From contig JANQPM010000017.1 of the NCBI GenBank assembly GCA_028289465.1, positions 1 through 46,501 of the forward strand: 46,501 nucleotides of DNA, given 5' to 3'. Origin of the DNA: Lysobacterales bacterium (GTDB taxonomy: Bacteria; Pseudomonadota; Gammaproteobacteria; Xanthomonadales; SZUA-36). The notes under the pieces were generated by a model. It searched no databases. It was given only the letters and a program-made list of their open reading frames with translations, and was not told the DNA's origin. Made by a program: the position numbers and the translations under genes. Shown one piece after another: positions 1,551 to 42,878 of this stretch. The number at the start of each line of letters is the position of its first letter. Positions within the stretch are counted from its first letter, which is position 1.

Positions 1551-2021
1551 TCAGTAGGGCAGACCCAACTTTCGGTACACGGCGGACAGCAGCCAGGCCG
1601 GGCCCACCAGTAGAAACTGAACGTCCTTGAAAAAAGACGGGCGCTTGCCTTCCACGTAGTGGCCGATGAACTGTACGATCCATGCGACGACGAATACCGC
1701 TACGCCGACCATCCACAGGGGCGTCGCGACATTCACCGCGACCCAGTGCGCCAGCCACAGCATCGCCAGATTGACCAGCAGCAGGCCGAAGCCCAGCGAC
1801 CAGGATTTGCTGAAGTAGTAAATCTGTGCCAGTACCAGCACGACGATGGCCCAGTTCAGCGGGTAGCCGCCGAGGCCAAAGCCGTCCGGGAACGGGATCG
1901 ACCAGAGCAGTGCGACAACGCTCCAGACAATCGCCGGGACGCAGATCCAGTGAATGATCTTATTGGTCTTGTTCTGATGGCTTTCGCCATATTCATCGAG
2001 CAATGCCTGTATCGTTGCCAT
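1551..2021 (-). CDS. Mpo1-like (DUF962) membrane protein
   Basis: A 156-residue integral membrane protein with about four hydrophobic segments. It has the DUF962/Mpo1 hallmarks: an N-terminal HQNKTNKIIHWICVP stretch and a C-terminal FIGHYVEGKRPSFF motif followed by GPAWLL. The yeast homologue Mpo1 is an Fe(II)-dependent dioxygenase acting on 2-hydroxy fatty acids; the conserved histidines in both motifs fit a metal site here too. The role in bacteria is not established. The ATG lies 2 bp beyond the purC stop, and a GAGGAA ribosome site lies inside the end of purC, so the two are co-transcribed. Confidence 0.8.
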   Translation of the reverse strand: MATIQALLDEYGESHQNKTNKIIHWICVPAIVWSVVALLWSIPFPDGFGLGGYPLNWAIVVLVLAQIYYFSKSWSLGFGLLLVNLAMLWLAHWVAVNVATPLWMVGVAVFVVAWIVQFIGHYVEGKRPSFFKDVQFLLVGPAWLLSAVYRKLGLPY

Positions 2022-2023
2022 GG

Positions 2024-2923
2024 CTATTCTTCCTCTGAATTCGCGGTCAGCCGCCGGTAAGCCTCCCGGTACTTGGCCGCGGTGGCTTCAATAATAGCAT
2101 CGGGAATCCGCGGGCCGGGAGGCGTTTTGTCCCAATCCAGGGTTTCCAGGTAGTCACGGATGAATTGCTTGTCGTAGCTGGGCGGACTGATGCCGGTGGC
2201 ATAGGAGCTTTGCGGCCAGAAACGCGATGAATCGGGAGTCAGCATTTCGTCCATCACCATCAGCCGCCCGTCAGCATCCAGGCCGAATTCGAACTTGGTA
2301 TCGGCGATCAGAATACCGCGGCGCCGAGCATAGTCGGCCGCAAATTCGTAGATGGCCAGGCTGGCCGCTTTGACCTCCGCCGCCAGACCGGTGCCCAGGC
2401 TGGCTTCGATCTGTTCAAAGCTGATGTTCTCATCGTGATCGCCGACCGCGGCCTTGGTCGATGGCGTGAAAATCGGCTGTGCCAGGCGTTCGGCCTGCTG
2501 CAGCCCGGCTGAAAGGCGTATTCCGCTGACCGCGCCGGTCCGCCGATAGTCCTTCCAGCCCGAACCGATCAGATACCCTCGAACGATGGCTTCCAGCGGC
2601 AGGGCCTGCAGCTTTTTAACGATCACCGCCCGCGGTTTCAGGCGCGCGCGCAGCTGGGCATCTTCGATCACATCCTGCAACGGCACGTTCGACAGGTGGT
2701 TGGGACACAGCTTGCGGGTCCTGCGGAACCAGAAGTTGGAAATGCGGGTGAGCAGCTCACCCTTGCCGGGTATCGGCTGCGGCAGCACTACGTCAAAGGC
2801 CGATAGGCGGTCGGAGGCGACGATCAGCAGTGCATCGTCGCCCACAGCGAAGATATCGCGGACTTTTCCCTGGTGGATCAGTGGCAGATCGGTGATCCAG
2901 CTCGCATCGTATTGCAAACTCAA
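2024..2923 (-). CDS. purC: Phosphoribosylaminoimidazole-succinocarboxamide synthase (SAICAR synthetase)
   Basis: It catalyses ATP-dependent ligation of aspartate to CAIR in purine biosynthesis, in the cytosol. The 299-residue protein is of the longer, yeast-like form and shows GKVRDIFAV near residue 19, [25 protein letters not shown] and DTKFEFGLD, all typical of the family. The start used is TTG at 2923; no in-frame ATG lies close, and the protein begins as family members do. It is first in a minus-strand operon with the Mpo1-like gene, the glycosyltransferase and endonuclease V. A consensus -10 box lies at 2959-2964. Confidence 0.95.
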
Positions 2924-2958
2924 GGCCCTTTTATTGCAGGTGTTGAACGGCGCGTGAG

Positions 2959-2986
2959 ATTATAAAATATTCCGCGTTAATGTCTC
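2959..2986 (-). promoter_or_regulatory. Putative sigma-70 promoter of purC operon
   Basis: Reading the minus strand, GAGACA (4 of 6 matches to the -35 consensus) is followed after 16 bp by a perfect TATAAT, about 36 bp upstream of the purC TTG start. It lies in the 109-bp divergent gap between purC and djlA. Confidence 0.5.
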
Positions 2987-3032
2987 GTATTGAAATATCG
3001 CTTTTAGATTGGGTTCAGGATAAACGCCTCTT

Positions 3033-3815
3033 ATGCAGTCATTCCCGTTGCACTGGCTCGGCAAGATCATCGGTGGATTGCTGGGTCTGTTAAAAGGCGG
3101 CTACGTCGGGCTCGCTATCGGTGCGTTTGTCGGCCACTGGGTCGATCAGTGGCTGTCCGGAGACCGAACGGCGAAAAAGGTTCAAGGCCTGTTCTTCGAT
3201 GCGCTGTTCGCGTCGATCGGGCATCTGGCCAAGGCCGACGGGCGCGTATCGGAGGCCGAAATCGCGATGGTCGAATCGCTGTTTGACCGAATGGCCTTGT
3301 CGGCCGCCGAGCGGCAGCGGGCGATAGCGCAGTTCAACCGCGGCAAACGATCGGATTTTGTGCTGGAAGACGAGCTGGGCCAGTTTCTGCAGCGGACCAT
3401 TTTGCGCGCCGATTTACGGCGGATGTTCATGGAGATCGTGCTGGAAGCCGCGTTCTCGGATGGCCAACTGACCGAACCGGAACGTCAGGTGATATTGCGC
3501 ATTGCGGCCGGCCTCAGAATTCCGCGCATGCTGCTGGAGCGTCTGCTGGCCGCCTTTCAGCCCGCCTCGGCCGGCCGCGGTCGCGCGCCGGGCGCGGCGC
3601 GGTCCGAACCGAGTCCGTACCGGGTGCTGGGCGTGTCGCCGAACGACAGCCCTGCGCAAATCAAGCGCGCTTATCGTAAACTGATGAGCCAGCACCATCC
3701 GGATAAACTGGTCGCGCGCGGTCTGCCGCCCGAAATGGTGGAAATGGCCAAGCAAAAGGCACGCGATATCAATGCGGCCTATGACCGCATCAAGGAACTG
3801 AAAAGCTTTAAATAG
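3033..3815 (+). CDS. djlA: DjlA-like co-chaperone (TerB plus DnaJ domain)
   Basis: A membrane-anchored J-domain protein that would stimulate the DnaK ATPase at the inner membrane. The N-terminus has a glycine-rich hydrophobic segment (about residues 8-35, with the GxxxG-like pattern GKIIGGLLGLLKGGYVGLAIG) as in DjlA. A TerB-like helical domain follows (about 50-165). A C-terminal J domain (about 195-260) carries YRVLGVSPNDS and the HHPDKL motif with the essential HPD. Its 260 residues match the family. It is transcribed divergently from purC, and rpe starts 8 bp after its stop. Confidence 0.88.
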   Translation: MQSFPLHWLGKIIGGLLGLLKGGYVGLAIGAFVGHWVDQWLSGDRTAKKVQGLFFDALFASIGHLAKADGRVSEAEIAMVESLFDRMALSAAERQRAIAQFNRGKRSDFVLEDELGQFLQRTILRADLRRMFMEIVLEAAFSDGQLTEPERQVILRIAAGLRIPRMLLERLLAAFQPASAGRGRAPGAARSEPSPYRVLGVSPNDSPAQIKRAYRKLMSQHHPDKLVARGLPPEMVEMAKQKARDINAAYDRIKELKSFK

Positions 3816-3823
3816 GTGAGTGA

Positions 3824-4492
3824 ATGAAACAGTCCGACGTCATTGCGCCATCCATTCTGTCTGCCGATTTCGCTCGTTTGGGCGAGGAAGTGGATGCAGT
3901 GCTCGCTGCCGGTGCCGACTGGATTCATTTCGATGTGATGGACAATCACTACGTGCCGAATCTGACCATCGGGCCGATGGTCTGCAAGGCTCTGCGCGAG
4001 CACGGCGTGCAGGCGCCGATTGACGTGCATTTGATGGTCAAGCCCGTGGACCGCATCATTCCCGACTTTGCCGATGCCGGCGCCAGTCTGATCAGCTTTC
4101 ATCCGGAAGCCAGCGAGCACATAGACCGGACCATTCAACTGATCAAGGAGTGCGGCTGCGAGGCCGGGCTGGTTTTCAATCCGGCAACCGAGCTGGATAT
4201 TCTGGATTACGTGCTGCCGCAACTGGATCTGGTCTTGCTGATGTCGGTCAATCCGGGGTTTGGCGGGCAGAAATTTATTCCGTATGTGCTGAATAAGATC
4301 GCTACGGTGCGGCGGATGATCGACGACTCCGGCGCTACCGCACGTCTCGAAGTCGACGGCGGCATCAAGGTGGACAATATCCGCAAGGTTGCGGATGCCG
4401 GTGCCGATACCTTTGTCGCCGGTTCGGCGATCTTTGGCACCAAAGATTATGCGCGGACTATCGACGCATTTCGGGCCGAACTGACCGTCTGA
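3824..4492 (+). CDS. rpe: Ribulose-phosphate 3-epimerase
   Basis: It interconverts ribulose 5-phosphate and xylulose 5-phosphate in the pentose phosphate pathway. The 222-residue TIM barrel shows [16 protein letters not shown] at the start, [30 protein letters not shown] and VDGGI, which hold the metal ligands and phosphate-binding loops of the family. It begins 8 bp downstream of djlA with a GGTGAG ribosome site and is probably co-transcribed with it. Confidence 0.96.
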
Positions 4493-4571
4493 ACCCAGGG
4501 ACCGCATCCATTCCGTTTTGAACCGGCGTCAGACCGGTGCGGGTCGAAGCCAGGAACTTGATGACTGGACA

Positions 4572-4594
4572 TTTGTCTGATATTTTACGACAAA
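4572..4594. promoter_or_regulatory. Inverted repeat, candidate autoregulatory operator of the Xre/RES pair
   Basis: TTTGTC (4572-4577) and GACAAA (4589-4594) form a perfect 6-bp inverted repeat with an 11-bp A/T-rich spacer, ending 18 bp before the antitoxin ATG. That position suits an operator for an autorepressing antitoxin. There is no clear Shine-Dalgarno before the ATG at 4613, so the transcript may be nearly leaderless. Confidence 0.45.
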
Positions 4595-4612
4595 ATACCA
4601 ATAACTCTTGTT

Positions 4613-5056
4613 ATGGCGACACCGCAAGCACAACTCGACATCGAACAGTCTGCCGTTCATCTGCTGGTTAGCAGCCCGCTGGCGGACGATTATCAGGTGG
4701 TTGAAACCCTGCAGGACGGGCTGCGCTGGCGGAATGCCGAGCAGTTGCGGCAGTTCGCCGGGTTAACCACCCATGAATTTGCCGATGCGCTGAATGTCTC
4801 GGAGCGCACCTATCAGCGTCGCCGCAATGCGCTGTTGAGCGCCGGCATGTCAAACCGGGCGTATCGTCTGGGCCAGTTGGTGGATCAGGCTATCGAACTT
4901 TATAACGGCGATCTGGAAACAGGGCTGCGTTGGTTAAAGACGCCGAATGCCGCACTGGACCATAAAACGCCGTTTACGGTCTTACAGTCTGAGGTCGGTG
5001 CGGACCAGGTTGAACGGCTGATCGGTCAACTGCGCGCCGGTATCAATCCGGCCTGA
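4613..5056 (+). CDS. Xre/MbcA/ParS-type antitoxin of a RES toxin-antitoxin pair
   Basis: A 147-residue protein with an N-terminal helix-turn-helix region (about 45-80, AGLTTHEFADALNVSERTYQRRR) and a C-terminal DUF2384-like toxin-binding domain (about 90-145, ending in a LKTPNAALDHKTPFTVL segment), the standard layout of Xre antitoxins paired with RES toxins. It should neutralise the downstream RES protein and bind its own promoter; an inverted repeat sits just upstream. The toxin gene begins 2 bp after its stop. Confidence 0.88.
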   Translation: MATPQAQLDIEQSAVHLLVSSPLADDYQVVETLQDGLRWRNAEQLRQFAGLTTHEFADALNVSERTYQRRRNALLSAGMSNRAYRLGQLVDQAIELYNGDLETGLRWLKTPNAALDHKTPFTVLQSEVGADQVERLIGQLRAGINPA

Positions 5057-5058
5057 GC

Positions 5059-5520
5059 ATGATCGTCTGGCGGACGGTCTCGCTGGACTGGACTTACGAT
5101 CACCTCGGCGGCCACGGCGCCGCTGCTTTTCCAGGACGCTGGAACCAGCGCGGTGAACGGACGATCTATACCGCGGGTTCTTTGTCGCTGGCAATGCTGG
5201 AAACCTTAATCTACCTGCAACCGCCGTATCCCACGCGGCTGCTGTTGGAAATGGAAGTTCCCGACAACCGTATTCACTCGGATACCAACCTGTTTAATAG
5301 TCCGGATATCGTCCGCGACAAGCGGCGTTCCAGGCCGTATGGCTCAGGATGGCTGCGCGAACAAAAACACCTGGCTATTCGGGTACCGTCGGTCTTGTTT
5401 CCCGACAAGTACAGCGCTGCGGAACACAATCTGCTGATTAATCCCGAGCATCCGGACATTCGGCAGGTCACCATTCGGTCAACCGGCGAATGGAACCCGG
5501 ATCAACGATTCCAGCGGTGA
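5059..5520 (+). CDS. RES-domain toxin (NAD-degrading family)
   Basis: A 153-residue RES-domain protein. The family is named for conserved Arg, Glu and Ser residues and includes toxins that deplete NAD+. Visible here are WRTVS at the start, GRWNQRGERTIYTAGSLSLAMLETL (split over residues 29-53), and a C-terminal VPSVLFPDKYSAAEHNLLINPEH with the expected serine/asparagine-rich end. Length fits the family. It directly follows its antitoxin, which supports function as a bicistronic type II module. Confidence 0.88.
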   Translation: MIVWRTVSLDWTYDHLGGHGAAAFPGRWNQRGERTIYTAGSLSLAMLETLIYLQPPYPTRLLLEMEVPDNRIHSDTNLFNSPDIVRDKRRSRPYGSGWLREQKHLAIRVPSVLFPDKYSAAEHNLLINPEHPDIRQVTIRSTGEWNPDQRFQR

Positions 5521-5593
5521 GAATCCGGCCGCTTGCTTCGCAATACGCACCGTTTGGCGCGTTGGCCTGTCGCGTGAGCCGCCGGCCGAACAC

Positions 5594-6223
5594 CTAAAGT
5601 ACGGCTGTTTGCCGGGCTGCTGCCGAAGGGCGAGGCAGGTCGGCTGCCGACGGCAGTGCAGTGACCACATAACGCAGCGGGCTCGTCGCGCGGAGCGCGT
5701 TAAACGGGTAGCAGGTGACCAGTGTCAGGCGCGGTACTCCGGGTTCCAACAACAGGTCCTGGCGCGTCGAATCGACGATTTCCATTTGGCTGATTTCAAA
5801 GCTCAGGCGCCGATCCGGCGTGGTCAGCAAAATGCGGTCGCCGGCCCGAAGCGCGTTCAAGCCGGCAAAATGCGTATCCCGATGGCCGCTGAGCACCGTA
5901 TCATCCAACCCGATCGGCCCGCCGGCCGATGCCGCAACCGGCCCCCAGGCGAGATTGCGCCCTGAAGTCCCGGAAAGCACGAACTGCCGCACGCCAAGCC
6001 GCGGGATTTCCAAAATGCCGACAGGCGACGTATCGGCCCATGGCCATGGTCTGGCATCGGTCCGGCCGGCCAGCACCTGGTGCCAGGCGCGTTCGACCAA
6101 TACTTGTCCGAGCGCCGCTTTGGCCGGAATCCACAGTGCCTGCAAAGTAAAAAAGACGGCGGCTAGCAAGCTAGCCGCCCAAACGGCACGTGGAGGCCGG
6201 TCAATGATCTTGCGGATCATCAT
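5594..6223 (-). CDS. Class GN sortase (proteobacterial dedicated sortase)
   Basis: A membrane-bound cysteine transpeptidase of the Gram-negative class. With the start at the double ATG near 6223 it has 209 residues: a signal anchor (about 12-33), then the sortase barrel with catalytic H114 in LSGHRDTHF, C171 in TLVTCYPF and R184 in SPLRY. A longer frame exists upstream but would overlap the target gene, whose stop is at 6238. The gene sits 14 bp after that VIT/VWA target gene, the usual arrangement for this dedicated one-substrate system. It converges on the RES toxin gene. Confidence 0.9.
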   Translation of the reverse strand: MMIRKIIDRPPRAVWAASLLAAVFFTLQALWIPAKAALGQVLVERAWHQVLAGRTDARPWPWADTSPVGILEIPRLGVRQFVLSGTSGRNLAWGPVAASAGGPIGLDDTVLSGHRDTHFAGLNALRAGDRILLTTPDRRLSFEISQMEIVDSTRQDLLLEPGVPRLTLVTCYPFNALRATSPLRYVVTALPSAADLPRPSAAARQTAVL

Positions 6224-6237
6224 CGGAGTGCCAGTCC

Positions 6238-8346
6238 TCAGGAGTAGGAAAGCCTGCAGCGTGCACTGCGCCGGTACAGCCAGCCGGCCGCCAGCAGACC
6301 GGCCAGGCTCAGCAGCAGCTGCCATTGCCAGCCGGCGGCTGTGGCCGCGAAAGCCACAGCCGGGCCGCTGCCGGCCGGCAACAGGCTGCCGATGGTCTGG
6401 CTGTCCAGCGTTTCATGCTGAAAGCGCACCGGCGTCTTGTCCACGGCGACCATGCTGGTGTATTGCGTCAGTAAACGGTGTTTCAGGGCCAGGCCGATCA
6501 CCGCCGCCTTGATCTCTTCCGGCGGCTGGCCGAACAGCAAATTGTCTTGCAGCGCGGCGATTTTCGATCGGGCCCACAAGGTTGCGATATTTTCGCTTTG
6601 CAGGCGCGGCTGCACATCGTAGGTCTGCTGCCAGTAGCGGCCGTCATACTGGCCGCAGATGGTTACCGCGGACGGCAGCGAATCGAATCTGGCGGTCAGC
6701 CATAGCGGTTCCCCGGCATACAGGTCCGGAATCACCTGTGGATAGGTTTCGGCCGGCTGCCCCCAGTCGACGCAGATATCCGACAAGGCCGGGCGCTGGA
6801 TACGATCCCATAGGGCCGCCATTTCCACTTCCACTTCGCCCAGGTGCCCGATATGGGTGAAAGTGCCGCGTCCGATTTCGGCGGCTTTACGCATGAAATA
6901 GCTGTTCGGCGCGGAGCCGATGCCGACGGTAAACAGCCGGCTGTCATTAAGCCAGGTTTCGATTTGCCGGAACAATTGATCCTCGTTGCCGACCGCGCCG
7001 TCGGTAATGAAGATCACCTGGCGCAGGTCCGCATCTACCGGATCGGACTGGAGCGACATTTGCAGCGCTGGCAGCATATTGGTGCCGCCGTCGGAATCCA
7101 GATTGCCGATGAATTTCCGGGCTTGGCGCAATGCATCGCCGGAGGCCGGCGCGGACTCGGGAAACAAGCTTATGGCATCGTCATCGAAGTCGATAATATT
7201 GAAGTAGTCAGCTGGCTGCAGATTGTCCAGCGCCTGAATCAGCGCGGCACTGGCCTGTTCCAGCGAGCTGCCGGCCATGGAACCGGAGCTGTCGATCACG
7301 AAAATCACTTCGCGTGCTATTAATTGCACGGATTCCGCTGCCGGTGGCACCAGCATCAGCAGTGCATATGCCGCGTCGCCATCGTCCCAGGACAAGACTG
7401 CCGGCGCCGGATCGGTTTGTCGTTCCGGTGACCAGATCAGCTCGAAATCGCGATCGGTCACCGGCCATGGGCCGTCCAGCGCAATATGGTATCCATTGGC
7501 CAGCGGATGCACGTTGACGCCATGATAGCGGCTTTCCACAAAGCTCATCTCCAGATCGCTTTTCAAGTGCGCGTTCAAGGTCAGGCCATGCTGCTGTTCG
7601 GCGGCATTGCCGGTGAAAACGACCCGGGCGGCGGCCTGCTGCGGTGGATCGGCGCGATCGCCCCAGCGGGGGGTAAAGGTCATCGGCAGGCGCAGGCTGA
7701 ATACGCCGTCACGTATCTGGACCGGCTGCAGAAAGCTGATGGATACCAGGATTTCTTCGCCGGGGCCGATATTCGCCAGGCGGGTCTGAAACTGATTCGG
7801 CCGCTGCTGTTCGACCAGGGACGCGGTCTGGCCGTTCTGGCGGGCCTGCTGGTAGACGCGTTTGGCTTCGGCTTTTTCCTGTATTTCCCCTTCCAGAACG
7901 CGGTCGCCGACAACGATCTGCATACGGTCGACCGCCGCGTCATGAGGCAGCGGAAAACGATAGGTGCCTTCCATCCAGTGCAGGCTGTCATTTTTGAAGA
8001 CCTGAGTGACCCAGACCCGGGAGACCAGCCCGGTGATTTCGATTTCCACATCGGTGTTCAGCGCCAGCGCCAGGCTGTCGCCGTGCTCTGACGCCATTTC
8101 CAGCCCGTAGGCTTCATCGGCCGATGCCGATCCGGTCCGCAGCAGAAACAATGCGAGTAGAATGCTGGCCACGATCAGCAGGTAGCGGTCCTGCCAGCGC
8201 AGACTGCGGGTTTCGCGGATGATGATTTTCTGATTCCGCGACGCCAGACGGTCGGCCAGATCAGGGTCCTGCCGCCGCAGCGCCCGGTCCAGACGACTGC
8301 GAATCTGCCGGCTATCGGTTGGGTTGTCATTCAAGGTCAGCGCCAT
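6238..8346 (-). CDS. Sortase target protein with VIT and VWA domains
   Basis: The 702-residue partner of the downstream sortase. The start is set by a GGAGG 5 bp upstream of the ATG at 8346; upstream in-frame codons lack such support. Order: a basic cytoplasmic N-tail (1-52), a signal-anchor/signal segment (about 53-75, with SASA before DEA), a VIT domain (about 85-210), a VWA domain with MIDAS motif DSSGS, then a C-terminal sorting signal: LPAGS (bases 6367-6381), a hydrophobic helix and a basic tail YRRSARCR. Proteins of this type are described as the sole sortase substrate in marine Proteobacteria. The sorting motif is not canonical LPXTG. Surface or envelope anchoring is inferred. Confidence 0.88.
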   Translation of the reverse strand: MALTLNDNPTDSRQIRSRLDRALRRQDPDLADRLASRNQKIIIRETRSLRWQDRYLLIVASILLALFLLRTGSASADEAYGLEMASEHGDSLALALNTDVEIEITGLVSRVWVTQVFKNDSLHWMEGTYRFPLPHDAAVDRMQIVVGDRVLEGEIQEKAEAKRVYQQARQNGQTASLVEQQRPNQFQTRLANIGPGEEILVSISFLQPVQIRDGVFSLRLPMTFTPRWGDRADPPQQAAARVVFTGNAAEQQHGLTLNAHLKSDLEMSFVESRYHGVNVHPLANGYHIALDGPWPVTDRDFELIWSPERQTDPAPAVLSWDDGDAAYALLMLVPPAAESVQLIAREVIFVIDSSGSMAGSSLEQASAALIQALDNLQPADYFNIIDFDDDAISLFPESAPASGDALRQARKFIGNLDSDGGTNMLPALQMSLQSDPVDADLRQVIFITDGAVGNEDQLFRQIETWLNDSRLFTVGIGSAPNSYFMRKAAEIGRGTFTHIGHLGEVEVEMAALWDRIQRPALSDICVDWGQPAETYPQVIPDLYAGEPLWLTARFDSLPSAVTICGQYDGRYWQQTYDVQPRLQSENIATLWARSKIAALQDNLLFGQPPEEIKAAVIGLALKHRLLTQYTSMVAVDKTPVRFQHETLDSQTIGSLLPAGSGPAVAFAATAAGWQWQLLLSLAGLLAAGWLYRRSARCRLSYS

Positions 8347-8405
8347 GGGTTCCTCCAATCTTCGCTTCGATCCGCCCGTAAGGCAGATGCGGTGGTGTTC
8401 ATGCT

Positions 8406-8433
8406 TGTCTATTGGAGCAGCGCGAAAGGTCAA
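8406..8433 (-). promoter_or_regulatory. Putative promoter of the target/sortase operon
   Basis: On the minus strand TTGACC (5 of 6 to -35 consensus) is followed after 16 bp by TAGACA (weak -10), about 60 bp upstream of the target-protein ATG. It faces away from the PdsR promoter within the same 235-bp divergent gap, so the regulator could control both sides. Confidence 0.35.
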
Positions 8434-8503
8434 GACGGCGCCGGAATCGGGCCCGGCGGCGCATAAATTATGGCAATTCGGTGGCGACATCCCGTGCCGG
8501 TGC

Positions 8504-8531
8504 TTGTCAAAGGCAGTGACGCGGCTATCAT
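8504..8531 (+). promoter_or_regulatory. Putative sigma-70 promoter of pdsRS
   Basis: TTGTCA (8504-8509), a 16-bp spacer and TATCAT (8526-8531) lie about 50 bp before the response-regulator ATG at 8582, whose ribosome site is GGGGAG. Both boxes match consensus at 5 of 6 positions. Confidence 0.55.
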
Positions 8532-8581
8532 GGCGCTACGGGTTTTGCAGCGCCGGTATTGCAGCCGGGGAGTGACGATTC

Positions 8582-9295
8582 ATGCAGCGACATATCGCAA
8601 TCGTGGAAGACGAGGCGGCCATCCGCCAGAACTATCAGGATGCACTGAGGCATTACAACTATCGAGTCAGCGGTTATGCCGACCGCTATTCCGCATTGCA
8701 GAATTTCCAGCGCCAGATTCCGGACTTGGTCATCATTGATGTCGGGCTGGGTGACGAAGCCGAAGGCGGTTTTACGCTGTGTCGGGAATTGCGCGCGTTG
8801 TCGCGCACCGTGCCGATTATCTTCCTGACTGCCCGGGATTCGGATCTGGATGTGATTTCCGGGCTGCGGCTGGGCGCGGACGACTATCTGACCAAGGACA
8901 TCAGCATTAATCACCTGATCGCACGCGTGGTGGCCCTGTTTCGTCGTGTCGAAGCCTTGTCATCCAATACCAAAGAGGAGGAATGGCGACGCGGCCACCT
9001 GACCGTGCGGCCCTCGCGCATGGAAGTGATCTGGAAGGAGCAATTGGTGCCGTTGACGGTTACGGAGTTCTGGCTGATCCATTCGCTGGTACATCATCCG
9101 GGCCATGTGCGCAGCCGGCAGCAATTGATGGATGACGCCAATGTGCTGGTCGACGGCCAGACCATTACCAGCCATATCAAGCGTATTCGGCGGAAATTCC
9201 AGCAGTTGGACAAGGAATTTGACGAACTGGAAACCGTCTACGGTGCCGGTTATCGCTGGCGTCCGCAGACCGAAACGGAAAGCCATGCATCATAA
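8582..9295 (+). CDS. pdsR: Dedicated sortase system response regulator (PdsR type, OmpR family)
   Basis: A 237-residue two-component regulator. The receiver domain (1-120) has the acidic pair E9/D10, phospho-acceptor D53 (IIDVGLGD), T83 and K105. A winged-helix OmpR-type DNA-binding domain follows (about 140-230) with VYGAGYRW at the end. Its position divergent to a class GN sortase and its target, next to a matching kinase, is the basis for assigning it to the proteobacterial dedicated sortase system rather than a generic OmpR. It probably regulates the sortase operon and itself from the shared gap. Confidence 0.85.
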   Translation: MQRHIAIVEDEAAIRQNYQDALRHYNYRVSGYADRYSALQNFQRQIPDLVIIDVGLGDEAEGGFTLCRELRALSRTVPIIFLTARDSDLDVISGLRLGADDYLTKDISINHLIARVVALFRRVEALSSNTKEEEWRRGHLTVRPSRMEVIWKEQLVPLTVTEFWLIHSLVHHPGHVRSRQQLMDDANVLVDGQTITSHIKRIRRKFQQLDKEFDELETVYGAGYRWRPQTETESHAS

Positions 9296-34359: not shown

Positions 34360-35492
34360 TTACCAGCGCCCGTAGCTCAGCTGGATAGAGTACTGCCCTC
34401 CGAAGGCAGGGGTCAGAGGTTCGAATCCTCTCGGGCGCGCCATTTTACATTTCGCGTTGTTGGAATCCCGTAAGAGTTTGAAAGGCAAGGCGATTTGGGG
34501 TGTTCGAAACCCTTCTTTGCGGTGATAGGTCAAACGCTTTGAAAAGGTAAGCTTTAGCACCATTCTTTTATGCTTCAATCGCTCTGATGACCAGAGTTTA
34601 TGCGGGTTTGAAAGAAAGGCGAGCGCGTGTTCGAACAATTCCTCCAGGGTGCCTTTCGGTTGAGTACTATTTTTCGATTTTTCGCCAGAATTGCTTTTTC
34701 TCTTTCCAGTTTAATAATCTGCTGTTCATAGGTATTGATCACCCGATCATTGGACGCCCGCACAATCCGACTGAGGAATTGATCAATCCTGGTTTCAACG
34801 GTTTTAAGCTGCTTCTTAGCCGCTTTCACTGACTCTGTGGCTTGGGACAGTCTATGGTTCCATGCGCCCTTAAACATGGCGCGGAATACCTTGAGTAACC
34901 CTTTTGTGGGAGTGAGTTGTTTAAGCAGCGTTTCAAAAGCATCTTCAATCCGGTCACGGGGAATAGACTTACCTTTACTGATGCAGCTCTGGTTGCGACA
35001 TAAATAATAAGCATAACGTTTGCTTTTGCCTTTCGACCAACACGCCGTTAAAGGCTTGTCACAATCACCGCATAAAACGAAGCCCCGAAGCGGAAAGTCC
35101 TTATTCAGGTCTTTGCGTGCCGGGGCTTTGGCTCCCTGTGTCAGCCGGTCTTGAATGCGTTGCCATGTAGCCAGAGAAACAAGCCCTTCATGCTGGCCTT
35201 CGGTGAGAGGGATTTTCCATTTCGGTGCTTCGACATAACCCGCATAGGCCACACGGGTTAATAATTCAGTGATGCGCTGGTTGCGGATTTGTCCATTCGG
35301 CAAATCTTTGGGATACACAGGCTGGCTTTCCAGAAAGCGTTTGACCTCAACCTGCGTTTCAAACCGCCCGGAGGCAAAGCCTTCGAGGGCTTCTTGAATA
35401 ATGGAGGCAATCGCATAGATTCCCCCCTTGTCTGTGCTGACAGCAAGGATGCCCATTCCAGGAGGCGCGTCAGCCGCGCCCCCACTTCTCAA
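34360..35492 (-). pseudogene. Large serine recombinase remnant (lacks catalytic domain, frameshifted)
   Basis: The main frame (34575-35492) holds the PF07508-like recombinase domain (ALEGFASGRFETQVEVKRFL), a zinc-ribbon (CGDCDKPLTACW ... CRNQSC) and a coiled coil, but no N-terminal resolvase catalytic domain with its serine. Near 34640 homology moves to another frame (EHALAFLSNPHKLWSSERLK), so one base has been lost or gained. This second frame ends in MARPRGFEPLTPAFGGQYS, which is tRNA-Arg read antisense, and stops at 34360. It would have driven integration of the island; it should now be inactive. Confidence 0.85.
34367..34442 (+). tRNA. tRNA-Arg (anticodon CCG), CCA encoded
   Basis: A complete cloverleaf: a 7-bp acceptor stem (GCGCCCG with CGGGCGC), a D arm, an anticodon stem CTGCC/GGCAG with loop CTCCGAA (anticodon CCG, codon CGG), a T arm AGAGG-TTCGAAT-CCTCT, discriminator G and an encoded CCA. 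It is the probable integration target of the island to its right: the recombinase remnant reads antisense into it. Confidence 0.95.
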
Positions 35493-35705
35493 TTTCTCCG
35501 AATTCTTGCCTCAATCAGGCGAAATGCAGGCAATCCGCATGGGGTTCTTACCTTTTGTGAAAAAGGGTGTGATAGGCTTGCGCTTCGTGGTTTAAAGGGG
35601 TTAAGGGCGGATCGTTTTGGCAACCCATTTTCAAAGACAACCTAACCCCGTGAGCCAGATGGCTCCGTTTATCGTTATTGTCGGATGTTTAAAGGAGGGC
35701 GCTTC

Positions 35706-38690
35706 GTGAAATCGTTCCTGTTGGCCGGCCTGTTGGGCCTAATTCAATTCACTCCCGATACACTCAATGCAGCCCCTGAAGTCGCCCCGATCTTGAAGGG
35801 CCAAGTCGATCTGCTCAATGAGCTGACCGAACGCCGGCGGGTGAACACGTTTTTCTCGAATGAGCAGTCGATTTTCCACGGTGTGCAAAAAGGCTTTGTT
35901 AACGTGGGTACGGGGAACCTGACCTTTGTGCGCCGGGATTTGGCCACTGTGGGACGTATTCCGGTGGTGTTCGCCCGCGTCTACGATAGCCGCTATAGCG
36001 GTGCTTCCGATTTTTCCCCTGGCTGGCGATTGAGTCTTGCTGAGATCATTGAAGAGTTGCCGGATGGCACTCTGGTCTATACCGACGACAGCCTGACTCA
36101 GACCCGCTTTGCACCGATCGGTTCGGGTTATGCCATCACACCAGCTCAGCCTTCCGATATTCGCGCAGTAGCACTCACCAACAGCGACACCCTCAAAGTC
36201 GATTACCGCAACCAATGGCAAAAGACATTCAAACGTCATGGCGAGGGGTATCGGCTGAAAAAAGTGAAAGATAACAACGGTAATAGTCTGGCCCTCAAGT
36301 ATCAAAATGGCCAATTGGCCTCGATAGCGGGGCAAAACGGCCGTTTTGTTGCCATCACCCGACACCCCAGTGGCCAGATCACGCAGGTGATGGACGACCA
36401 AGGCCGGACCGTGAACTATCACTACAATACCCAAGGCCAGCTCTCCAAAGTCATTGATCTGGGCGGCAATGCCTGGACCTACCGCTATACCGAGGACGGC
36501 CAACTGCGCCAGGTCAAAGACCCACGGGGTCATGAAGCCCTGAACGTGACCTACGACGATGACCAGGTCACACGCACCCGCATTCGCGGGGCCAAGTACC
36601 GCTATACCTACGATGATGAGACCACAACCGTCAAAGACGAAGCCGGCAATAAGAGCACGTTCACTCAGAACGAGGATGGGATCACGATCAAGGTGAAGAA
36701 CGCCGAAGGCTTTGTCAGCAAAATCCAGTTGGATGAAAATAACCAGGTCACGCAGCTCAAGCACAACGGCCAGAAACGGGGCACCTTCACCTATGATGAC
36801 TTCGGCAATCCCGCCCGGATGGTGCGCTATGACCAAGAAGGACTGGTTGAGCTGACCTATTTATTCGATTGGGAAGACCGGGTTGTTGAAATTGAGGGGA
36901 CGGACGGGACCACTCAAACCTTAAGCTACGATGAGAAGGGCAATCTCTTGTCCCAGAGCGAAAATGGTCAAGCCATCCAGTACCGCTACAATACTGACGG
37001 CGACTGGACCAGCCAAACGCTTGACGGGGAGACCATCGAATACCGGCATAATGCCGATGGGCTGTTAACCCGAATCACACAGAACGGATCCATCACCCGC
37101 TTTCGTTACAACGCCACCGGCCGTTTGGACCGGATTACGTTTCCGAATGGTAACCGCCACACCTATCAATACGATGCCCTGGGCTTTAGAACCCGAACCG
37201 AACGTAGTGACGGCAGTCATATGAACTATCAGTACGATAGTGCGGGCAATATGATCGAAAATGACGGTCAGCATGCGGATGGTGACACCTATGGCGAGCG
37301 GTTTACCCTGGATGCGGAAAACCGGGTAAGCCGGATGGATTTTCCCGAAAACCAGGGGCTGGATATCACTTATGATGATAAGGGTAATCCTATCACCCTG
37401 GACTGGGGTGATCGCACAATGTCTTGTGAATACGACCCAGAAGGCCGCTTGACCAAGGTCACGGACAGCGAAAAAGGAACCAGTGAATATACTTATCAGC
37501 CGGGTGAGGCCGATATCCGCAGGCAGCTAGATGACCGAACGGCAGGCACCCAGAGCAATCAGCGAAAGGCTTCGGCTACATTGCAAGCCCTGAACAACAC
37601 CAGCTACACCCGACCAGGCGGGACGCCGTGGCCTGTGCTTACTTTGGATAGCAATCTGGCGGTGATGGATTTACCGACCAATATCGGTTTGGTCGATCCT
37701 GGTGCGATCCAGCAATCCGCCAATCAACGCCGGCGGCTCTATAACGCTACAGCCTTTGACGATATTACCCAAAGGAGGTTCGATAAGGCTTCCAACAGCT
37801 TTTTCCTTCCGGCTGAATACGCAGCAGTCAATTGTGCGCTGGGGTGTTTTTTGGGAAGTATTACGCTAAATATACCATCAACGGTAAATGCGGGGTCATC
37901 GTTCACCATTGTCGCCGCAGCCAGCAACATTGGCCCTACCTGTGAGGCCATTACCTACGATTGGTACATCAACGGTGCTTATGTTCCAGGAGGGGCAAAT
38001 GGAACATTAACCACAATACTAACCGCGCTTGGAACGGTGGATATTGTTGGTCAAGCAGAAGGCGCTTGTGATCAATGTACGAGTATTGTGGCTGACACAG
38101 TTCAATCTAACTGTAATGATACTAATTACAATCATCATAGAAACGATCCAACCGAAAAATTTAACAACAACGATCAATGGGTTGATAATATTGGTAAGGC
38201 AGTAAATCCGTCTAATAATGACGTTAGAATTATCGGTACAATTAAGGCAAGAGTTTATGACTTTCCTAATCATACCGGCACCTTTGAACCCACAGCGCAG
38301 GAACTTGATAATGTTGTAGCAGGTATTGATGAATTCTGGGGGCTAGACAACTATGAGTATGCTTGTTCTGCTTACCGATATAAATCTGACTTAACGATAT
38401 CATCCCTCCATAATGCGGGATCAACGCTTTCTGATTATCTTCTCGTTGGGAAAGGTGGTGTTCCCGTAATTTATTCGGCAATAGCTGGTACAGGCGGAAG
38501 GACTATAAGAATTGGTGAATTTGAAGGCATATGGACGGGGGATGAAGAAGAAGTGGTAGGTCATGAGTTCGGTCACAATCTTGGATTCAGACACAATGAC
38601 AATACTACAAGCGATATTATGTACCCGGTCTATGTTACAAGCGGTGATGTGCATGGATATCACGCGCGTATTCTATCGGAAGATTATTAG
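35706..38690 (+). CDS. Secreted RHS-repeat protein with C-terminal metzincin protease domain
   Basis: A 994-residue protein; the GTG at 35706 has AGGAGG 7 bp upstream and gives a clean Sec signal peptide (1-22, ending LNA). A DUF6531-like region follows, then about 400 residues of RHS/YD repeats (many YxYDxxGN-type units). Next come a linker, a cysteine-containing Ig/PKD-like segment (about 720-800) and a C-terminal zinc protease with H953-E-F-G-H957-N-L-G-F-R-H963 and a Met-turn at D-I-M972-Y-P. This is the layout of a polymorphic toxin with a metzincin warhead. No DPxG auto-cleavage motif is clear. The ankyrin-repeat gene follows 5 bp later. Toxicity is inferred, not shown. Confidence 0.85.
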   Translation: MKSFLLAGLLGLIQFTPDTLNAAPEVAPILKGQVDLLNELTERRRVNTFFSNEQSIFHGVQKGFVNVGTGNLTFVRRDLATVGRIPVVFARVYDSRYSGASDFSPGWRLSLAEIIEELPDGTLVYTDDSLTQTRFAPIGSGYAITPAQPSDIRAVALTNSDTLKVDYRNQWQKTFKRHGEGYRLKKVKDNNGNSLALKYQNGQLASIAGQNGRFVAITRHPSGQITQVMDDQGRTVNYHYNTQGQLSKVIDLGGNAWTYRYTEDGQLRQVKDPRGHEALNVTYDDDQVTRTRIRGAKYRYTYDDETTTVKDEAGNKSTFTQNEDGITIKVKNAEGFVSKIQLDENNQVTQLKHNGQKRGTFTYDDFGNPARMVRYDQEGLVELTYLFDWEDRVVEIEGTDGTTQTLSYDEKGNLLSQSENGQAIQYRYNTDGDWTSQTLDGETIEYRHNADGLLTRITQNGSITRFRYNATGRLDRITFPNGNRHTYQYDALGFRTRTERSDGSHMNYQYDSAGNMIENDGQHADGDTYGERFTLDAENRVSRMDFPENQGLDITYDDKGNPITLDWGDRTMSCEYDPEGRLTKVTDSEKGTSEYTYQPGEADIRRQLDDRTAGTQSNQRKASATLQALNNTSYTRPGGTPWPVLTLDSNLAVMDLPTNIGLVDPGAIQQSANQRRRLYNATAFDDITQRRFDKASNSFFLPAEYAAVNCALGCFLGSITLNIPSTVNAGSSFTIVAAASNIGPTCEAITYDWYINGAYVPGGANGTLTTILTALGTVDIVGQAEGACDQCTSIVADTVQSNCNDTNYNHHRNDPTEKFNNNDQWVDNIGKAVNPSNNDVRIIGTIKARVYDFPNHTGTFEPTAQELDNVVAGIDEFWGLDNYEYACSAYRYKSDLTISSLHNAGSTLSDYLLVGKGGVPVIYSAIAGTGGRTIRIGEFEGIWTGDEEEVVGHEFGHNLGFRHNDNTTSDIMYPVYVTSGDVHGYHARILSEDY

Positions 38691-38695
38691 TAACA

Positions 38696-40540
38696 ATGCT
38701 TCGCCTTTCAGTAAAAGCACTTTTAGTATTGTCCGTGGTCTACGTTGGCCAAGGACTTGCTGACATCAGTCAAAGTTGCGAAGAAATAGACTCTCTGGAA
38801 TGCGCCATACATGCGGGAAGTTTGGATGATGCCGAAAGGCTTTTGACTTCCGGGGCTGATCCAAATTCTGAAATTCGTATTGCGCTGGACCCTGGCTCTA
38901 AATCAAAAAACAGAAAATGGCCGGCGCTTTTGTTCTCTATAGCAAATGGCAACGAAGATATTGCCCTGCTGTTACTCAAGCATGGCGCAGACCCCCTTTA
39001 TGACAACCGAGGTCGAATCCTTTATTCAGCCATAAATGCCGAAATGAATGGAGTGGTTGAATTCATTACGTCTCAACCTAATTTTAAGTCGACCGTCGAA
39101 GTATATGAAGCGGCGAATATCGGCCTGATTAATTTAGCAGTAAATCGTGGCGATTTTGATCTTGTAAATTTTTTGCTAGGTAGCGGGTTTGATCTATATA
39201 AGCAGACGAAATCCGCTTCATATTTAAGGGAGTCGCTTCATGCCGGAAATGAGTCCATGTTGAGGCTATTTCTTGCTCATGGGATAGAAATTACAAAAGT
39301 TAATGACAAAGATTCTCTAATACTCCACGCATCAAATAGCACCTACCCAGGAATGATGGCAGAGCTGATCAAGCGAAATATGCCACTAGCTAATTACAAT
39401 AGCGCCGAATCAACGCCGTTTCACCAGGCTTCGCTGAATTGCCGTCATCAGGAGTGGTTAATGAGTCTTCTGCTAAAGCAGAATATACCCGCATGTGAGG
39501 AAAGCCATGGCGGTGGTAGCGTTGTCAATCAGGAACTGCTTTTACGCAAAGCAGGCAAAAGCGTTCTGTCAACTTTTTCACTAAAGTTATTAGAAGAAAA
39601 ATGGGGAAGTTGTGAAACTGAAAATCAGTTTGACGATGTTTTTGCATTGGATGTAGTAAATGCTACTTCCAATGGTGCTTATGTCATTAATGACTGCGCT
39701 GATGTTCAATGTGCACTTTTGTCTTCGGATGATAAAAAAGCCGCCAAAGTCATTAAAGATCAATCACTGCGTTATGATACTAGCGTTACATTCAATGGGG
39801 TTGAGTTTCCTTTAATTCGCTGGATGCTTGCTTTAGGGGAAAATGATTCAGCCATTAATCTAGTGAGTTCTGATTTCTCTTGCTCCGCCTCTAATCAGTT
39901 ATCCCTTTTTCATGAGGGATTATCGCTCGGCCGGTTTCGTTTCTTGAACTACTTGTTGGCAAACGACCCACAATTTGATCAATATGTTTGTGCTGACGAA
40001 TTTGAACTGAACCCACTTCATCAATCAGTTCTTGCTGGCGATTATTCTATGGCAGAGAAACTGCTCAGCTCAGGTCAGAGTGTCAATCAAAAAGATGCCT
40101 TTGGGCTGCCGCCCGTCGCCTATGCTTTAGCCTTTGGTATGGAAGACTTCGTGACACTGTTTCTCGATCACGACGCAGACATGACCTTTACCAGCAGTCA
40201 CAATCAAAATGCTTCCCATATGGCCGCACTGGGTGATGTCGATTTAGATCACTTTATGACAATGGAAGAGATAGCTCCCTTGCTAGGTGCAATTGATTCC
40301 GTATTTGGTCGGAATTCAGTACTTACTGGTATGGCTAGTGATTGCCCCTACGGATATCCAGCCTTGTCGGTAAAATGGGGGAGCGCTGATGATGTAGAAG
40401 ATAAATTTGGCTTGGGCTATTCAAGCTATACCACTGTTTACGAGAGCGAATATGAGATAGATTCTCACGTATACAGTAAATCACTGCAAGATTTTTGCTC
40501 TGAGGACGATCACGCCGCGAAGTGCAGGCCGCCAGAGTAA
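38696..40540 (+). CDS. Exported ankyrin-repeat protein, candidate immunity partner
   Basis: A 614-residue protein with a signal peptide (about 1-22, ending GLA) and no lipobox, so it is predicted to be periplasmic. Ankyrin units lie near residues 33-60 (AGSLDDAERLLTSGADPN), 75-135, 145-175, 180-210 and 440-510 (AGDYSMAEKLLSSGQSVN; DFVTLFLDHDADM); the middle is more divergent with scattered cysteines. It begins 5 bp after the RHS-metzincin stop. Ankyrin proteins are a recognised immunity class in polymorphic toxin loci, and a periplasmic address would suit a secreted protease. Codon and base use are A/T-rich like the toxin tail. Confidence 0.75.
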   Translation: MLRLSVKALLVLSVVYVGQGLADISQSCEEIDSLECAIHAGSLDDAERLLTSGADPNSEIRIALDPGSKSKNRKWPALLFSIANGNEDIALLLLKHGADPLYDNRGRILYSAINAEMNGVVEFITSQPNFKSTVEVYEAANIGLINLAVNRGDFDLVNFLLGSGFDLYKQTKSASYLRESLHAGNESMLRLFLAHGIEITKVNDKDSLILHASNSTYPGMMAELIKRNMPLANYNSAESTPFHQASLNCRHQEWLMSLLLKQNIPACEESHGGGSVVNQELLLRKAGKSVLSTFSLKLLEEKWGSCETENQFDDVFALDVVNATSNGAYVINDCADVQCALLSSDDKKAAKVIKDQSLRYDTSVTFNGVEFPLIRWMLALGENDSAINLVSSDFSCSASNQLSLFHEGLSLGRFRFLNYLLANDPQFDQYVCADEFELNPLHQSVLAGDYSMAEKLLSSGQSVNQKDAFGLPPVAYALAFGMEDFVTLFLDHDADMTFTSSHNQNASHMAALGDVDLDHFMTMEEIAPLLGAIDSVFGRNSVLTGMASDCPYGYPALSVKWGSADDVEDKFGLGYSSYTTVYESEYEIDSHVYSKSLQDFCSEDDHAAKCRPPE

Positions 40541-41018: not shown

Positions 41019-42878
41019 ATGTCTGATAACCACACCCCATTGGGCGGGACTAAGTCCTTGCCCATGTCCGTTGATAATGTTGGCTTTCTTCTGGACCGAT
41101 TAGGAGAAGATTGTGCGCCGCTGCAATACCTTCGGGAGCTGACCCAAAACTCTATAGAAGCTATAGAACGAACTGGTAAACCAGGAACAATTACATGGGA
41201 CGTCGATTGGATTTCCTATGATCTTGGTGGTGGTCCGATGAAGCTTTGCATCACTGACACCGGCGATGGAATGACTGGTGAGGAAATGGAGAAGTTCATT
41301 AATCAACTGTCGTCAAGTGGAAGCGAACAGTCGTTTTCATCAAACTATGGTGTCGGTGCTAAAATCGCCGCAGCAACAAAAAATCCTGCGGGTGTAGTTT
41401 ACCAATCCTGGAAAGACAGTAACGGCTATATGATCCAGCTTGATAAGAACTTAGATACAGGAAATTACGGGCTACGACAATGGGAAATAAATGACGGCAC
41501 TTACTCATTTCATTTCCCTCTCGAAGATGATGTGAAACCTAAGCAAATAGGTGAGCACGGCACTAAGGTTATCCTTCTGGGTAATGACAACAGCGCATCT
41601 ACTATTGAGCCTCCAAAAGAGGCAGCAGCCCCATCACGTTGGATATCGAAATACTTAAATACACGGTACTTCAAATTCCCAGAAGACATTACGGTGCAAG
41701 CCCGTGAGGGCTGGGATTTTCCTCGTTCAGATAGCGACCGTAATAAGCTTCGTACAATAATAGGCCAGAAACGATACCTAGATCAGCATTGCGAGATATC
41801 GGGAGTCCATGAATTGGAGTCTGCCCGCGTGCATTGGTGGATACTCAAGGATGAATCAGCGATAAGCAATAACAGCGGTTATATAGAGTCCGCAGGGCAT
41901 GCTGCTGCGCTTTATCAAAATGAGTTATACGACCGTGCTACTGCGAGAGCTGGAACGGCAATGCTTCAGCAGTTTGGCATTTTATTTGGCGTTAAGTATG
42001 TCGTTCTTTATGTCGAGCCTATCGCAGGGGATCTAAATACATTGACGACTAACACAGCTCGTACTACTTTATTGCTCAATAAAGACAAGCTGCCATGGTC
42101 AGATTGGGCATATGAGTTCCGCCAGACCATGCCTTCAGAACTTGCCGAGTTCGTTAAGTCTCAAGCCTCTGCAGCAACTGATAAAGACCATCTTAAAAGC
42201 ATCAAAGAACGTTTAAAAAATGTTATGGATCTTTACAAAGTCAGCAGGTACAGGCCCTCGCCTGAAGGGATGTATCTTGCCGACCAATCGTCATCCGTAA
42301 CAGCAGGCGATGCCCCGTTTTCGGGCAATGAATCGAAAACTAAGGGTGGTAGTGGGAATTCGCTTAATACGGTCACGCCAGGGGTACGCGATGGCGAAAT
42401 AGGTAATATATATCAACTGTTTGAGAAGAGCGGCGGCACACCAAGCAAGAAAGAAAAAACCGATCCTTTCCCAGTTGTGAAGTGGTTGAGCATCAAGGAC
42501 GGCACACGAAGTGAAGGTGATATGGAGGACAAAGCAGCAAAGTATCTTGCCGACCAGAATACGTTGCTTGTGAACGCAGATTTCCGTGTCTTTTCTGATA
42601 TGGTGAATCGCCTTGTCAAGGAAAAAAATCCCGGTAATACAATTGAGATCGGTGAAATTGTTACAGATGTGGTCCACCAATGGTTCGAACAAGCATTAAT
42701 TGAAACTGTAATAGGTGTGCAGCAGCTTAAGGGTAGCAAGGAGTGGCCCCCTAATGACATCGAGCGTGCGCTATCTTCTGAAGCGCTAACGTCTGCACTT
42801 ATGCAGCGTTACCATGTGTATATTGCCTGCAAGCGTGAGCTTGGTGCGAAGCTAGGAAAAGCAATGAGCCAGCAATGA
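41019..42878 (+). CDS. GHKL-fold (Hsp90-like) ATPase of unknown function
   Basis: A 619-residue soluble protein. The N-terminal ATP-binding domain has the N box E40-LTQN44-SIEA, G1 box D80-TGDGM and G2 motif GVGAK (111-115), with a flexible SSSGS lid between, as in MutL/Hsp90/topoisomerase VI. No histidine-kinase H box and no known transducer domain is evident; a Ser/Gly-rich low-complexity linker (about 425-460) separates a helical C-terminal domain. A GGAG site lies 7 bp before the ATG. It is a lone gene on the island. Stand-alone GHKL proteins occur in phage-defence and DNA-processing settings, but I cannot place it in a named system. Confidence 0.7.
   Translation: MSDNHTPLGGTKSLPMSVDNVGFLLDRLGEDCAPLQYLRELTQNSIEAIERTGKPGTITWDVDWISYDLGGGPMKLCITDTGDGMTGEEMEKFINQLSSSGSEQSFSSNYGVGAKIAAATKNPAGVVYQSWKDSNGYMIQLDKNLDTGNYGLRQWEINDGTYSFHFPLEDDVKPKQIGEHGTKVILLGNDNSASTIEPPKEAAAPSRWISKYLNTRYFKFPEDITVQAREGWDFPRSDSDRNKLRTIIGQKRYLDQHCEISGVHELESARVHWWILKDESAISNNSGYIESAGHAAALYQNELYDRATARAGTAMLQQFGILFGVKYVVLYVEPIAGDLNTLTTNTARTTLLLNKDKLPWSDWAYEFRQTMPSELAEFVKSQASAATDKDHLKSIKERLKNVMDLYKVSRYRPSPEGMYLADQSSSVTAGDAPFSGNESKTKGGSGNSLNTVTPGVRDGEIGNIYQLFEKSGGTPSKKEKTDPFPVVKWLSIKDGTRSEGDMEDKAAKYLADQNTLLVNADFRVFSDMVNRLVKEKNPGNTIEIGEIVTDVVHQWFEQALIETVIGVQQLKGSKEWPPNDIERALSSEALTSALMQRYHVYIACKRELGAKLGKAMSQQ

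What the first reader, a model, noticed from the sequence alone, without database searches (positions are those of the whole stretch)
38696..40540. Periplasmic ankyrin-repeat protein as cognate immunity to the RHS-metzincin
It starts 5 bp after the RHS gene, has a Sec signal and ankyrin repeats, and shares the A/T-rich composition of the toxin tail. Ankyrin proteins are one of the described immunity classes in polymorphic toxin loci. Periplasmic location would protect against a secreted protease arriving from a sibling.
Basis: inference. Interest (0 to 1): 0.6.

Follow-up and report, generated by a model that had tools for sequence, protein, structure and literature searches.

The report
Periplasmic ankyrin immunity beside RHS metzincin
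A gene for a secreted ankyrin-repeat protein sits directly behind a secreted RHS protein that ends in a metal-dependent protease, and an independently found relative with the same pairing makes it likely that the ankyrin protein is the antidote that keeps the maker from being digested by its own toxin.

Summary
ORF 38696-40540 (+, 614 aa) starts 5 nt after the RHS gene (35685-38690), has a Sec-type N-terminus and significant ankyrin repeats, and shares the A/T-rich composition of the RHS tail. The tail is a metzincin-type zincin by motif (HEFGHNLGFRHND, then Met-turn SDIMYP). The ankyrin protein has only generic ankyrin matches elsewhere, so I tested the claim from the RHS side. A profile of the RHS core/tail junction, blind to toxin and ankyrin, found 12 further core copies in the order and one Algicola MAG: constant core, swapped tails. 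Nearly every complete tail is followed, overlapping or within 9 nt, by a different gene with a Sec-type signal. In another family (G062) the tail is a metzincin relative and the next gene again encodes a Sec-signal ankyrin protein. A third locus pairs a different HExxH tail with a weak Sec-ankyrin protein. One metzincin-like tail (G139) lacks a partner. Periplasmic ankyrin immunity is known (Bd3460, Tli, Imm-ank); I found no description of its pairing with an RHS metzincin. Binding and protection are untested. Protection probably acts first during the producer's own export, since the RHS protein carries a Sec-type signal.

The parts
35685..38690 (+). RHS polymorphic-toxin-like gene, 1001 aa: Sec-type signal, DUF6531, RHS/YD repeats, variable tail
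   Evidence: DUF6531 1.8e-9, RHS_repeat 5.7e-25, YD_repeat_2x 2.9e-23; translation
35685..35771 (+). Sec-type signal peptide of the RHS protein (MFKGGRFVKSFLLAGLLGLIQFTPDTLNA|APEV)
   Evidence: Read from the sequence; not run through a trained predictor
37779..37835 (+). Core/tail junction motif FDKASNSFFLPAEYAAVNC; core conserved before it, tails swapped after it
   Evidence: Alignments A1, A2, A4; 12 further core copies
38187..38687 (+). Metzincin-type metallopeptidase tail; zinc motif HEFGHNLGFRHND at 38562-38600, Met-turn SDIMYP following
   Evidence: relative in G062
38696..40540 (+). Sec-signal ankyrin-repeat protein, 614 aa: predicted periplasmic immunity protein
38696..38761 (+). Predicted Sec signal peptide of the ankyrin protein
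   Evidence: Read from the sequence; crude rule also positive, with a later cut site
34366..34442 (+). tRNA-Arg (CCG) at the low-GC island border
   Evidence: ARAGORN; GC profile
34575..35492 (-). Large serine recombinase remnant (Zn-ribbon and Recombinase domains, no N-terminal catalytic domain matched), sign of a mobile island
   Evidence: Zn_ribbon_recom 1.1e-10, Recombinase 1.9e-4

Best explanation
The ankyrin protein is the cognate immunity protein of the metzincin tail of the RHS protein next to it. The RHS protein is exported through Sec and carries its protease tail out of the cell. The ankyrin protein is exported to the producer's own periplasm, where its solenoid is proposed to bind the metzincin domain and cover its active-site cleft. 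This would protect the producer while the toxin passes through, and protect siblings that receive it. Shown here: gene order, domains, signal-like N-termini, swapping of tail and next gene around a constant core, and an independent metzincin plus Sec-ankyrin pair. Inferred: periplasmic location, binding, inhibition, antibacterial use, and the route across the outer membrane.
For: A 5-nt gap and shared low GC. Copies of the same RHS core share one junction and then diverge. Of the 10 next genes found, 9 pass a crude signal test against 28% of 131 control ORFs (binomial P about 9e-5), and the tenth has a signal-like stretch at a later possible start. In G062 the metzincin relative (34% over 68 aa, shared C-terminal YHAxILxExY) is followed by a Sec-ankyrin gene overlapping it by 29 nt. 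In G025:C4 an HExxH tail has a Sec-signal protein with weak Ank (Ank_2 E=0.0065) 3 nt behind. Ankyrin genes are rare: 2 loci in G000, 2 in G062. No ankyrin partner was seen behind the non-HExxH tails. Precedents: Bd3460, a periplasmic ankyrin protein that inhibits endopeptidases (PMC4686830), Tli (PMC11470151), Imm-ank (PMC3482391).
Against: G139 has a metzincin-like tail (HELGHALGL, third ligand unclear) with no same-strand gene behind it. The HEKEHE tail in Algicola has a non-ankyrin partner. The ankyrin-HExxH link across tails is only suggestive (3 of 5 against 0 of 6, Fisher p=0.06). The G062 RHS reading frame is interrupted between core and tail. The window and G025:C4 ankyrin proteins show no direct similarity. 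No usable structure model was obtained.
Confidence: 0.8

Rival explanations
1. The pair is a secreted protease with its own periplasmic inhibitor, used for nutrition, matrix remodelling or processing of the RHS shell, not for killing competitors. The ankyrin protein is an inhibitor of self-digestion, not a polymorphic-toxin immunity protein.
For: The RHS protein has a Sec-type signal and no T6SS sheath gene was found in G000 and four other carrier genomes. Metzincins are commonly secreted proteases (general knowledge).
Against: The same core carries many unrelated tails, each with its own Sec-signal partner, which fits competition toxins better than a single digestive enzyme.
Confidence: 0.1
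2. The ankyrin protein is an accessory or second effector (chaperone, activator, exported partner) of the RHS protein instead of, or besides, being its immunity protein.
For: In E. cloacae the ankyrin protein Tli has both roles, neutralising and activating its effector (PMC11470151). At 614 aa the window protein is larger than Bd3460 or the G062 ankyrin protein.
Against: The genes in this position change together with the tail, as immunity genes do, while an export chaperone for the constant core would be expected to stay constant.
Confidence: 0.06
3. The ankyrin gene is a passenger of the mobile island with no functional tie to the RHS gene.
For: The island holds other cargo: a recombinase remnant, a HATPase gene and low GC. 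G139 shows a metzincin-like tail with no partner.
Against: The same arrangement recurs in G062, another family, where ankyrin genes are rare.
Confidence: 0.04

Closest known systems
Bd3460 of Bdellovibrio bacteriovorus (PMC4686830)
   Same: Signal-peptide ankyrin protein encoded directly downstream of the secreted peptidase it inhibits; protects the producer; complex structures place ankyrin repeats over the active-site cleft.
   Different: Its targets are DD-endopeptidases acting on peptidoglycan, not a zinc protease on an RHS protein; it is far smaller (about 220 aa against 614 aa).
Tli, ankyrin-repeat immunity lipoprotein of T6SS lipase Tle6 in Enterobacter cloacae (PMC11470151)
   Same: Exported ankyrin-repeat protein encoded with an antibacterial effector and neutralising it in the periplasm.
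   Different: Lipoprotein, T6SS effector, phospholipase; Tli also activates its effector. The window protein shows no lipobox and no T6SS sheath gene was found.
Imm-ank of polymorphic toxin systems (Zhang et al. 2012, PMC3482391)
   Same: Ankyrin-repeat protein as the adjacent immunity gene in polymorphic toxin loci.
   Different: Listed there with nuclease (Tox-AHH, Tox-GH-E) and deaminase toxins; the peptidase toxins Tox-MPTase1-5 are listed with no immunity protein.
Sec-dependent RHS toxins (T2SS/Sec route in PMC3482391; Bcn-A of Xanthomonas perforans, PMC7259588)
   Same: RHS-repeat protein; Bcn-A activity is found in the culture supernatant and a predicted immunity gene lies downstream.
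   Different: Different core: this one has DUF6531 and an FDKxSNS...PxEYxxxNC junction followed by a linker that resembles an Ig/PKD domain.

Membership tests
Polymorphic toxin system (RHS type) | Constant N-terminal region with unrelated C-terminal domains in different copies | tested here: met
   Alignments A1, A2 and A4 against tails
Polymorphic toxin system (RHS type) | Immunity-type gene immediately downstream that changes with the tail | tested here: met
   10 next genes, from 34-nt overlap to 9-nt gap, different from one another; one tail (G139) lacks it
Polymorphic toxin system (RHS type) | Tail is toxic to bacteria and neutralised by the downstream protein | not testable with these tools
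   Needs expression experiments
Metzincin metallopeptidases | HExxHxxGxxH/D zinc motif followed by a Met-turn | tested here: met
   HEFGHNLGFRHND and SDIMYP; aligned to MMP-1; Pfam M10 slightly below cut-off
Metzincin metallopeptidases | Metzincin fold | tested here: inconclusive
   Single-sequence model unusable, pLDDT 29.6
Imm-ank / periplasmic ankyrin immunity proteins | Ankyrin repeats above curated cut-off | tested here: met
   Ank_2 1.9e-21; G062 partner 6.6e-10
Imm-ank / periplasmic ankyrin immunity proteins | Export signal | tested here: met
   Sec-type N-terminus, by reading and a crude rule only
Imm-ank / periplasmic ankyrin immunity proteins | Binds and inhibits the cognate toxin | not testable with these tools
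   No complex prediction available; models of single chains unusable
T6SS-delivered Rhs effector | T6SS in the genome and PAAR-type N-terminus | tested here: not met
   No TssB/VipA (PF05591) in G000, G025, G062, G139, G053; N-terminus is a Sec-type signal and no PAAR match

The most novel reading that the evidence does not exclude
A so far undescribed family of Sec-exported RHS toxins, with its own core/tail junction and mostly without a T6SS, whose cassettes carry signal-peptide immunity proteins. Its tails, several of them metallopeptidase-like, would act in the periplasm or at the envelope, and ankyrin solenoids would be recruited as metzincin inhibitors.
Probability: 0.5. Interest if true: 0.55.

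Novelty: new variant of a known kind. Interest (0 to 1): 0.45.

Why it matters
Metallopeptidase tails of RHS toxins were catalogued in 2012 without immunity proteins (PMC3482391). A recurring metzincin plus periplasmic ankyrin pair would give a candidate antidote for such a tail, and a natural ankyrin inhibitor of an MMP-like protease. The rare junction motif also gives a handle to collect more envelope-acting tails with their partners.

Tried and rejected
Direct homologue searches with the ankyrin protein gave only generic ankyrin matches or nothing (own genome, family, order, plasmids, viral and genome contigs), so co-occurrence could not be tested from the ankyrin side; I switched to the RHS junction. 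The full RHS tail found nothing in plasmids or viral contigs, and the junction nothing in plasmids or viral contigs. AlphaFold models of both proteins without alignments were unusable, so no fold search was run. Other ankyrin genes in the carrier genomes that I inspected lie in unrelated contexts (not all were inspected). A T6SS route was considered and dropped. Samples of the class and phylum found no further members.

Full report
Observation. The ORF at 38696-40540 (+) is real: 614 codons, ATG start, 5 nt after the stop of the RHS gene 35685-38690. Pfam gives ankyrin repeats far above cut-off (Ank_2 1.9e-21, four stretches). The N-terminus has the charged, hydrophobic and small-residue pattern of a Sec SPase I signal and no lipobox (crude rule and reading by eye, no trained predictor was available). 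The RHS tail is 40.7% GC, the ankyrin gene 43.6%, the RHS core 53.8% and the chromosome flank 60.7%. The whole stretch lies on a low-GC island beside a tRNA-Arg and a serine recombinase remnant.

The toxin side. The RHS protein (1001 aa) has a Sec-type signal, DUF6531 and RHS/YD repeats. Its last 170 residues contain HEFGHNLGFRHND followed by SDIMYP, the zinc motif and Met-turn of metzincins. Peptidase_M10 scores 22.7 bits against a cut-off of 24, and phmmer aligns this stretch to MMP-1 at E=0.0014. The fold itself could not be modelled.

The ankyrin protein has no traceable full-length relatives. Searches of the own genome, 39 genomes of the family, 299 of the order, plasmids, viral contigs and genome contigs gave only generic ankyrin matches or nothing. 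The co-occurrence test therefore had to start from the RHS gene.

Cassette structure. The RHS tail query found relatives that share the core up to a junction, FDKxSNSFFLPxEYxxxNC, and part of a linker that resembles an Ig/PKD domain (my reading), but end in different domains. One is in the same genome (C119), two in G025. Junction profiles found more: six in an Algicola MAG (G663), one each in G053, G062 and G139, and a fragment with a stop in G042. Leaving out that fragment, there are 13 copies with the window, of which two (L033, L034) are cut off by a contig end or partial. The family is rare: samples of the class and phylum gave no further members.

Next genes. Behind the complete tails, the next same-strand gene overlaps by up to 34 nt or starts within 9 nt; for G053 the true start codon is uncertain. 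Of 10 such genes, 9 pass a crude signal-peptide rule, against 37 of 131 control ORFs (28%), and the tenth (L031) has a signal-like stretch only at a later possible start. They look different from one another: HEAT-like (weak), ankyrin, helical proteins of about 310 aa, and others. This is the polymorphic-toxin pattern, with partners that carry export signals.

Direct test of the finding. In G062 (another family of the order), the tail is metzincin-like (HEFGHILGFND, then DIM, ending YHAQILFETY against YHARILSEDY in the window; 34% over 68 aa, E=3e-5 for that single comparison). The next gene, overlapping the tail by 29 nt, encodes a Sec-signal ankyrin protein (288 aa, Ank_2 6.6e-10), with 29% identity over 110 aa to the window protein (part of this is shared by all ankyrins). 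This RHS gene has its core and tail in different frames, so the copy may be decayed or the assembly may be in error. In G025:C4 an unrelated tail with THEGVHISE is followed after 3 nt by a Sec-signal protein with weak ankyrin repeats (Ank_2 E=0.0065). The search that found G062 was keyed on the RHS junction and knew nothing of ankyrin or protease. Ankyrin genes are rare in these genomes: two loci in G000, two in G062; by inference, adjacency by chance is of the order of one in a thousand per locus.

Evidence against. G139 has a metzincin-like tail (HELGHALGL, third ligand unclear) and no same-strand gene behind it. An Algicola tail with HEKEHE has a 169-aa partner with a lipobox-like IGAC and no ankyrin match. 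Over all tails, ankyrin partners go with HExxH tails in 3 of 5 cases and with other tails in 0 of 6 (Fisher p=0.06). The partners of L028, L031, L035 and L036 were judged non-ankyrin by reading, not by a family scan.

How it probably works. The RHS protein carries a Sec-type signal, and no T6SS sheath gene was found in G000, G025, G062, G139 or G053, though the Algicola MAG has two. The protease tail would therefore cross the producer's own periplasm. A periplasmic ankyrin solenoid that binds the tail would be needed there first, and would protect siblings too. Bd3460 of Bdellovibrio is a close working precedent: a signal-peptide ankyrin protein encoded behind the endopeptidase it inhibits, with repeats over the active-site cleft (PMC4686830). 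Tli of E. cloacae is a second one (PMC11470151). Binding, inhibition and killing are inferred here.

Known or new. Imm-ank is an established immunity class, listed with nuclease and deaminase toxins, while Tox-MPTase1-5 are listed without immunity proteins (PMC3482391). Three literature searches in the open library turned up no title or abstract reporting an RHS metzincin with an ankyrin partner; absence there is weak evidence. I file it as a new variant of a known kind.

Noticed in passing
L007 (G000:C119:66000-74399), 5317-8399 (-): Second copy of the same RHS core in the own genome, with a different tail of unknown type and an overlapping 260-aa Sec-signal gene with weak HEAT-like match.
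   Followed up: partly
window 41019-42878 (+): Protein of 619 aa with a weak HATPase_c (Hsp90/histidine-kinase-like) match in the same low-GC island, downstream of the ankyrin gene; no PADLOC match.
   Followed up: no
L008 5161-8148 (-) and L028 (G053:C7): Two similar tails with an HTHP motif (DUF4329-like in L028, weak), each followed by a Sec-signal protein of about 300 aa; the partners themselves are not alike.
   Followed up: partly
L031-L036 (Algicola MAG, G663): Six copies of the same core in one 9.2-Mb MAG, with several tails including an HEKEHE tail and a cysteine-rich tail; the MAG also has two T6SS sheath genes.
   Followed up: partly
L029 (G062:C75) 1786-4927 (-): The RHS core and its metzincin tail lie in different reading frames, so this copy may be decayed or the assembly may hold an error.
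   Followed up: no
L030 (G139:C11) 5820-9056 (-): Metzincin-like tail (HELGHALGL) with no same-strand gene behind it: an orphan cassette.
   Followed up: partly
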